A DNA stretch of 21,546 bases from a virus. A program made the position numbers and the translations under genes. Shown piece after piece: positions 13,007 to 13,870 of this stretch; positions within the stretch are counted from its first letter, which is position 1, and every line of letters starts with the position of its first letter. The stretch lies in IMG/VR virus record IMGVR_UViG_3300032271_000686, positions 1 to 21,546 of that record. One strand, given 5' to 3'. The notes beneath the pieces were generated by a model. It was not told the DNA's origin and did no database searches. It worked only from the letters and a program-made list of their open reading frames with translations.

Positions 13007-13870
13007 ATGGGCGCGATTCTGTCGCAAGCCCTTGGCTCTAACGCGCTACTGGTATCAAGTCATTCTGAAAACAAGGTTTTCTCATATCAGGCTGACACTT
13101 GGTCATCAGTTGACATTGACAACGCGCGAGGGCTTGCCGTAGGTCGGCAATACGTGGCCGTTGCTTCGCATACGTCGTTGTACTACTACGACAAGGCCAC
13201 GGGCAACCGCGTAGCCGTCCTTGACGTGCCGAACACCGACAGCCACGAGATCGGTTTTGCCGTTGATGATTCGGTGATCGCTTGCGCGTCGTACCAGTCG
13301 GCATTAACCCGCCACGCTTTCGGCGTCAACGAGGTTGTGTGGACGGTGCCAGGCGTCACCGCTGGAACGTCAGATGCTCGCTCATGGGTGAACGGCGTTG
13401 CCACCGTTAACGGCTTGCCTAAGTACGTCACCGCGCTGGGCATTTCCGATGTTTCACAGGGTTGGCGCGATGAGGCCAAAGCCGAGCGTGGTGCACTCAT
13501 CGACGCGCAAACCAATCAGGTTGTATTGCATAACTTGTTTTTCCCGCACTCGCCCACGATCGTTGGTGATTCGGTTTACTTCGCTAACTCGGGTCACGGC
13601 CAGTTATGCAAGTGGACGCCGGGTGATACTGCGGCCACCGTTGTAGCCACATTGTCGGGTTGGACTCGCGGCATTGTGCAGCTCGGCCAGTACCTGCTTG
13701 TCGGTATCTCACAGGGCCGTTTGACGGCGTTCCCTGAGATCACCACCGACCCGTTGGCGCAGCCTGGCATAGCCGTGATTGAACTGACGACCGGCACGCA
13801 GGTTGAGTTTGTGCCGATGGATGTGCGCGAAATTTTCGATATTAACTTGGCGGCCGAGAGGTTGAACTGA
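13007..13870 (+). CDS. DUF4915 / TIGR03032-like beta-propeller protein
   Basis: A 287-residue protein with repeated short beta-strand blades ([48 protein letters not shown]). It carries motifs I recognise from the uncharacterised TIGR03032/DUF4915 family of bacteria: DSHEIGF (78-84), [19 protein letters not shown] (127-145) followed by SD and GWR (152-154), PHSP (180-183), GWTRGI (218-223), VGIS (232-235) and REIFDINL (274-281). It is shorter at the N-terminus than the bacterial proteins I recall. No signal peptide or membrane helix is seen. Its place among tail tip genes suggests a virion or receptor-facing role, but this is inference; the family's biochemical activity is unknown to me. The ATG lies two bases after the preceding stop, and the stop overlaps the next start (TGATG). 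Confidence 0.75.

What the first reader, a model, noticed from the sequence alone, without database searches (positions are those of the whole stretch)
13007..13870. DUF4915/TIGR03032-type protein encoded in a phage tail locus
The protein carries the perfect-looking family motifs ([33 protein letters not shown]) of a bacterial family of unknown function, yet sits between tail genes with TGATG coupling. A propeller on the tail could bind host glycans, or the gene could act on host metabolism or on virion glycans together with the glycosyltransferase. It gives an angle on both the phage and the uncharacterised family.
Basis: partly seen in the sequence, partly recalled or inferred. Interest (0 to 1): 0.8.

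Follow-up and report, generated by a model that had tools for sequence, protein, structure and literature searches.

The report
Phage propeller protein in mobile cassette
A phage carries its own long-diverged version of a bacterial protein family of unknown function (a six-bladed propeller), as an optional gene in a small set of virion-surface genes that unrelated phages pass to one another; this points to a role in building or equipping the virus particle's surface proteins, which has not been tested.

Summary
The gene is real (13007-13870, 287 aa) and belongs to DUF4915 (PF16261, 141.8 bits against a cut-off of 35), but fails the TIGR03032 cut-off (133.5 against 251.5). AlphaFold2 gives a confident six-bladed propeller (pLDDT 92) whose family-wide residues gather at the rim of the central channel. 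The "perfect" motifs are not perfect: the phage branch has replaced C99, D124, C126 and H127 and lacks the YxPR-TGD segment. It forms its own deep clade. It is not a fixed tail gene: it belongs to a four-gene cassette (gp80-like, DUF4915, 88-aa protein, variable-domain plus Ser/Thr-rich protein) that follows the tape measure here but lies between capsid and connector genes in phages with unrelated capsids. DNA similarity to one of those (L003) is confined to the cassette; selection is purifying (dN/dS 0.05-0.10). Two phages keep the cassette without DUF4915, so it is an accessory. Bacterial relatives show no obvious signal peptide, are fused to sulfotransferase, hydroxylase-like or TPR-glycosyltransferase domains, and often adjoin very large ORFs. 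I favour an intracellular tailoring or assembly factor for the cassette's surface protein (0.45) over a virion-borne binding propeller (0.3). No ligand, activity or virion location is shown.

The parts
13007..13870 (+). DUF4915 protein, 287 aa; predicted six-bladed beta-propeller closed by strand 278-282
12606..13004 (+). gp80-like protein, 132 aa (PF23140 Gp80; phrog_240 'head protein'), first gene of the cassette
13870..14136 (+). 88-aa partner ('s90'); confident predicted fold helix-sheet-helix (pLDDT 92.9), no convincing PDB match; the viral-contig scan for relatives returned only loci that also carry this DUF4915
14136..15515 (+). 'mpt' protein, 459 aa: about 210-residue N-terminal domain that differs between phages, then a Thr/Ser/Ala-rich repeated region that is conserved
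12603..15406 (+). Extent of the mobile cassette: DNA similarity to L003 is confined to 12603-14152 (84%) and 14795-15406 (88%), with the variable mpt domain between
5236..6378 (+). ORF holding a phage glycosyltransferase (phrog_34859; true start probably near 5510); in relatives directly upstream of the gp80 cassette
10019..12514 (+). Tape-measure-like protein directly upstream of the cassette in this phage type
15517..18354 (+). Laminin-G-domain protein (phrog_5313), probably tail, directly downstream of the cassette in this phage type

Best explanation
The gene encodes a phage-specific DUF4915 six-bladed propeller. It is an optional member of a horizontally exchanged virion-surface cassette (gp80-like, DUF4915, 88-aa protein, variable-domain surface protein). 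Most likely it works inside the infected cell on the surface protein encoded two genes downstream, as a tailoring or assembly factor: its central pocket holds a ligand or a segment of the client protein while that protein is modified or folded, as its bacterial relatives appear to do for large exported proteins. Shown here: family, fold (predicted), cassette, mobility, purifying selection, accessory status. Inferred: cytoplasmic action, client protein, type of modification, and that the cassette's products sit on the virion surface.
For: AF2 model pLDDT 92, pTM 0.91, six blades. 13 of 30 residues shared by bacterial and phage members lie at the starts of the six inner strands, from every blade (G42, H80, R125/N129/G130, P180/H181/P183, R221/G222, E275); hypergeometric P=0.0009. 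A purely structural decoration would not be expected to keep a channel-rim residue set shared with bacteria at about 25% identity. Gene order DUF4915, about 90 aa, mpt is kept in the records long enough to show it: window, L002, L003, L005, L012, L093. The cassette is shared between phages whose capsid proteins have no detectable similarity: DUF4915 95%, portal 26%, TerL 36%. dN/dS 0.05-0.10. The cassette without DUF4915 exists in L109 and L110, so it is an add-on, as a tailoring factor would be. Bacterial members: no obvious N-terminal signal peptide; fusions to sulfotransferase (L026, L038), to a hydroxylase-like domain plus sulfotransferase (L050), to a hydroxylase-like domain (L086, L042) and to TPR with a glycosyltransferase-9-like segment (L039, L063); neighbours include RTX, autotransporter and Por-sorted proteins and GT41; adjacent ORFs of 700 aa or more are enriched (25/82 against 19/180, P=0.00014). 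An APS-kinase-like domain protein is next to it in phage L012 and near it in several bacterial loci.
Against: The phage branch has lost invariant C99, D124, C126 and H127, so any catalysis of the bacterial family may be gone. The Ser/Thr-rich stalk is absent from the mpt protein of L093, which keeps DUF4915 and the 88-aa gene, so the stalk cannot be the only client. No Sulfotransfer_3 match was found in the L012 or L005 records. The APS-kinase-like phage protein best matches a phage kinase family (phrog_10255) and may not make PAPS. The neighbour statistics rest on mechanically called ORFs. A virion protein made in the cytoplasm would also lack a signal peptide.
Confidence: 0.45

Rival explanations
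1. The propeller is itself a virion component: a decoration or adsorption protein, carried with the gp80-like and mpt proteins, that binds a host or environmental ligand (for instance a glycan) through its central pocket.
For: It sits between structural genes with tight coupling. gp80-like genes stand upstream of long fibre-like or lectin-domain proteins in many phages. The cassette moves as a unit and mpt has a hypervariable domain, as expected of surface modules. Top structural matches include ligand-binding six-bladed propellers such as LRP6, nidogen and the PknD sensor.
Against: DUF4915 is the constant part while the mpt domain varies, the reverse of a typical receptor-binding protein. Bacterial relatives show no sign of export and are fused to modifying enzymes. 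No virion anchoring domain is recognisable.
Confidence: 0.3
2. A metabolic or host-takeover gene (moron) acting on host surface proteins or small molecules, expressed late because of where it inserted.
For: Accessory presence: L109 and L110 lack it. The glycosyltransferase family near the cassette is classed by PHROGs as moron/AMG. The bacterial order tested has its own DUF4915 in 14 of 148 genomes.
Against: Morons usually move singly with their own signals. Here no + strand promoter or terminator is seen and the gene stays in one slot of one cassette across unrelated backbones. The phage clade is deep and distinct from all sampled bacteria, so it is not a recent host capture.
Confidence: 0.12
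3. A folding or assembly chaperone with no chemistry and no ligand pocket in use: the propeller and the 88-aa protein form a complex that helps the mpt protein fold or trimerise and then leaves.
For: Strict neighbourhood with the 88-aa and mpt genes; loss of several invariant residues in the phage branch.
Against: The conserved residues gather at the channel rim rather than being spread over an outer face. L109 and L110 encode a similar mpt protein without the propeller.
Confidence: 0.1

Closest known systems
PF16261 DUF4915 / TIGR03032 proteins of bacteria (Cyanobacteriota, Planctomycetota, Pseudomonadota, Bacteroidota, Actinomycetota, Chloroflexota)
   Same: Homologous over most of the length; shared channel-rim residues, W153-R154, PHSP, RG, EIFD; linked with surface or secreted proteins
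   Different: At most 31% identity over the alignment; own deep clade; C99, D124, C126, H127 and the YxPR-TGD segment lost; set beside virion genes instead of sulfotransferase, hydroxylase or TPR-glycosyltransferase partners
Six-bladed beta-propellers of other families (YWTD of LRP6 and nidogen, NHL of PknD, soluble quinoprotein glucose dehydrogenase)
   Same: Fold; a weak profile match to soluble glucose dehydrogenase, E=0.012
   Different: 10-18% identity; no shared motif. Fold resemblance only.
Phage gp80 / phrog_240 structural cassettes
   Same: gp80-like gene followed, often after one small gene, by a long fibre-like protein
   Different: Of the 77 gp80 loci, only L107 and L111 (the records already known as L003 and L002) carry a DUF4915 gene, and L108 is cut off 17 residues into one

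Membership tests
PF16261 DUF4915 | Score above Pfam gathering cut-off (35 bits) | tested here: met
   141.8 bits, E=3.7e-41
PF16261 DUF4915 | Coverage of the whole 316-position profile | tested here: inconclusive
   Only profile positions 96-306 match; the first part aligns in MAFFT and folds as part of the propeller but is too diverged for the profile
PF16261 DUF4915 | Residues invariant in bacterial members (DRCH-NG, FSC, YxPR, PHSP, RG, E-I-F) | tested here: inconclusive
   Many kept (R125, N129, P180-H181-P183, R221-G222, E275), others replaced or missing (C99, D124, C126, H127, YxPR)
TIGR03032 (hypothetical equivalog) | Score above curated equivalog cut-off (251.5 bits) | tested here: not met
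   133.5 bits; homologous, not an equivalog
Six-bladed beta-propeller fold | Six blades with closure of the first blade | tested here: met
   AF2 model pLDDT 92, strand pattern and closing strand 278-282; Foldseek matches led by six-bladed propellers. Predicted, not solved.
Phage tail structural protein | Consistent position in tail genes of relatives | tested here: not met
   Beside capsid genes in L003-L005, and before the portal gene in L093
Phage tail structural protein | Presence in the virion | not testable with these tools
   Needs mass spectrometry of particles

The most novel reading that the evidence does not exclude
DUF4915 is the client-binding or guide subunit of an undescribed system that modifies large surface proteins before export (hydroxylation, sulfation or O-glycosylation, judging by its fusions). 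Phages have taken a version of it, with an 88-aa partner, to equip an interchangeable virion-surface protein that unrelated phages trade as a ready-made cassette.
Probability: 0.25. Interest if true: 0.78.

Novelty: new variant of a known kind. Interest (0 to 1): 0.55.

Why it matters
DUF4915/TIGR03032 spans several bacterial phyla, and none of the three names used (TIGR03032, DUF4915, PF16261) appears in the open full-text library searched. The phage form gives a small natural experiment: a residue set that two very distant branches both kept, a short list of partners, and matching phages with and without the gene. The cassette also shows that capsid-unrelated phages trade a probable virion-surface module nearly intact, with only one domain hypervariable, which bears on how phage surfaces evolve.

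Tried and rejected
No match in 50,697 phage records with P0001, the 88-aa protein, or the L012 and L093 homologues; none in PHROGs; no PDB sequence match. The 88-aa model gave only phosphatase fragments at E>=0.03 with TM below 0.4, taken as chance. The L006 pattern hit is a large T4-type baseplate-like region protein carrying 'PKYVTALG' by chance. The bacterial hit in G082 is a decayed copy of the bacterial type, not a phage form. Recent capture from a host was rejected: the phage clade is separated from all bacterial rows by a long, fully supported branch, although long branches make its exact root unsure. The idea that the Ser/Thr stalk alone is the substrate was weakened by L093. Sulfation by a phage sulfotransferase: no Sulfotransfer_3 match in the L012, L005, L013 or L014 records. 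Literature searches on the gp80 protein of phage GP4 and on head-fibre cassettes found nothing usable.

Full report
Observation. The ORF at 13007-13870 is real, starts 2 bases after the gp80 stop codon and overlaps the next start by one base. It matches PF16261 DUF4915 with 141.8 bits over residues 76-281 and TIGR03032 with 133.5 bits, below that model's 251.5-bit cut-off. So it is DUF4915, but not a TIGR03032 equivalog. No PHROG and no phage record in the 50,697-record collection matches it.

Relatives. Scans of viral contigs gave a small set: L002 and L003 (95%), L004 and L005 (92%), L012 (52%), L093 (61% over the part present) and L108, a record cut off 17 residues into the gene. Two 188-200 kb contigs (L013, L014) carry a different, more bacterial-like form. 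A scan of bacterial genomes returned 75 loci at 26-37% best-segment identity.

Fold and residues. With a 51-sequence alignment AlphaFold2 gives pLDDT 92 and pTM 0.91; I read the strand list as six blades, with strand 278-282 closing the first. The best PDB matches are mostly six-bladed propellers (designed Pizza and SAKe proteins, LRP6, nidogen, PknD, Keap1) at 10-18% identity, so the fold is clear but names no function. Thirty positions are conserved both in at least 85% of bacterial members and in all five phage members used; 13 of them fall in the 54 positions around the starts of the six inner strands, with every blade contributing (P=0.0009). By the usual geometry of propellers this is the rim of the central channel. 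That placement is inferred from the strand list, not measured on coordinates, and I chose the 54-position window myself. The phage branch has replaced Y19, C99, D124, C126 and H127 and lacks the YxPR-TGD segment, and it forms one fully supported clade on a long branch.

Cassette. The gene is the second of four: gp80-like (12606), DUF4915 (13007), 88-aa protein (13870), and a 459-aa protein here called mpt (14136). In the window and L002 the cassette follows the tape measure gene. In L003 and L005 it stands between the capsid/glycosyltransferase genes and the head-tail connector, and L004 has the same upstream order before its contig ends. In L012 DUF4915, the 91-aa gene and a 736-aa gene in the mpt position follow a kinase-nucleotidyltransferase gene; its 736-aa product has no significant similarity to the window's mpt by BLAST. 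In L093 the trio precedes the portal gene and its mpt lacks the repeated region. Between the window and L003 the capsid proteins have no detectable similarity, portal is 26% and terminase 36% identical, yet DUF4915 is 95%, gp80 85% and the 88-aa protein 76% identical. DNA similarity between these two records is confined to 12603-14152 and 14795-15406; the gap is the N-terminal domain of mpt. L002, which has the window's backbone, is closer to L003 than to the window in gp80 and the 88-aa protein (97% against 83% and 75%), so exchange has probably happened more than once. DUF4915 is under strong purifying selection (dN/dS 0.05-0.10).

Accessory status. A scan with the gp80-like protein gave 77 loci. 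L109 and L110, with gp80 at 83%, have gp80, a short gene and an mpt protein (E=5e-19 and 3e-16) directly before a connector, and no DUF4915. The short gene in L109 is a recognisable relative of the 88-aa protein (E=2e-4), while in L110 it is shorter and did not match. In other gp80 loci long fibre-like or laminin-G proteins follow. The cassette is therefore best read as a virion-surface module, in which DUF4915 is optional. That its products are on the virion is inferred from gene position and from the gp80/phrog_240 annotation, not shown.

Bacterial clues. Starts of bacterial members show no obvious signal peptide by a simple hydrophobicity scan. Fusions: sulfotransferase (L026, L038); hydroxylase-like plus sulfotransferase (L050); hydroxylase-like (L086, L042), the hydroxylase-like call resting on a weak profile match to proline hydroxylases (E=0.001); TPR plus a glycosyltransferase-9-like segment (L039, L063). 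Neighbours include RTX proteins (7 of 96 ORFs scanned), Por-sorted proteins (6), autotransporters (5) and GT41 (2). Adjacent ORFs of 700 aa or more are enriched over more distant ORFs of the same loci (25/82 against 19/180, P=0.00014), although mechanically called ORFs in G+C-rich DNA inflate both counts. APS-kinase-like ORFs lie near DUF4915 in several Nostoc loci and L025, and directly upstream in phage L012, but the L012 protein best matches a phage kinase family (phrog_10255).

Reading. The most economical account is that DUF4915 proteins act in the cytoplasm on large proteins destined for a surface, and that the phage form serves the cassette's own surface protein (0.45). A virion-borne binding propeller remains a serious rival (0.3). 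What would separate them is virion mass spectrometry. The host is probably an actinobacterium, since all 57 capsid matches are mycobacteriophages (about 37% in the best), but this is weak.

Noticed in passing
window 15517-18354 and 8044-9345: The laminin-G-domain protein and the tail-tube-like protein share a stretch of about 109 residues at 61% identity, suggesting a domain copied within the genome.
   Followed up: no
window 14152-14795: The N-terminal domain of the mpt protein differs strongly between phages while DNA on both sides is conserved, a pattern of domain swapping.
   Followed up: partly
L012:3940-4722: Phage protein with an APS-kinase-like N-terminal part and a nucleotidyltransferase-like C-terminal part, directly upstream of DUF4915.
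   Followed up: partly
L050:3007-6627: Acidimicrobiia frame joining a hydroxylase-like domain, a sulfotransferase domain and DUF4915.
   Followed up: partly
L013 and L014, around 9941-10924: Two 188-200 kb contigs classed as viral carry a DUF4915 gene that keeps the bacterial RCH motif; what these contigs are was not settled.
   Followed up: no
L106:6678-7653: Decayed DUF4915 copy with stop codons in a genome of the same order as L038.
   Followed up: partly
window 5236-6378: Phage glycosyltransferase (phrog_34859) directly after the capsid gene; relatives precede the gp80 gene in many phages.
   Followed up: partly
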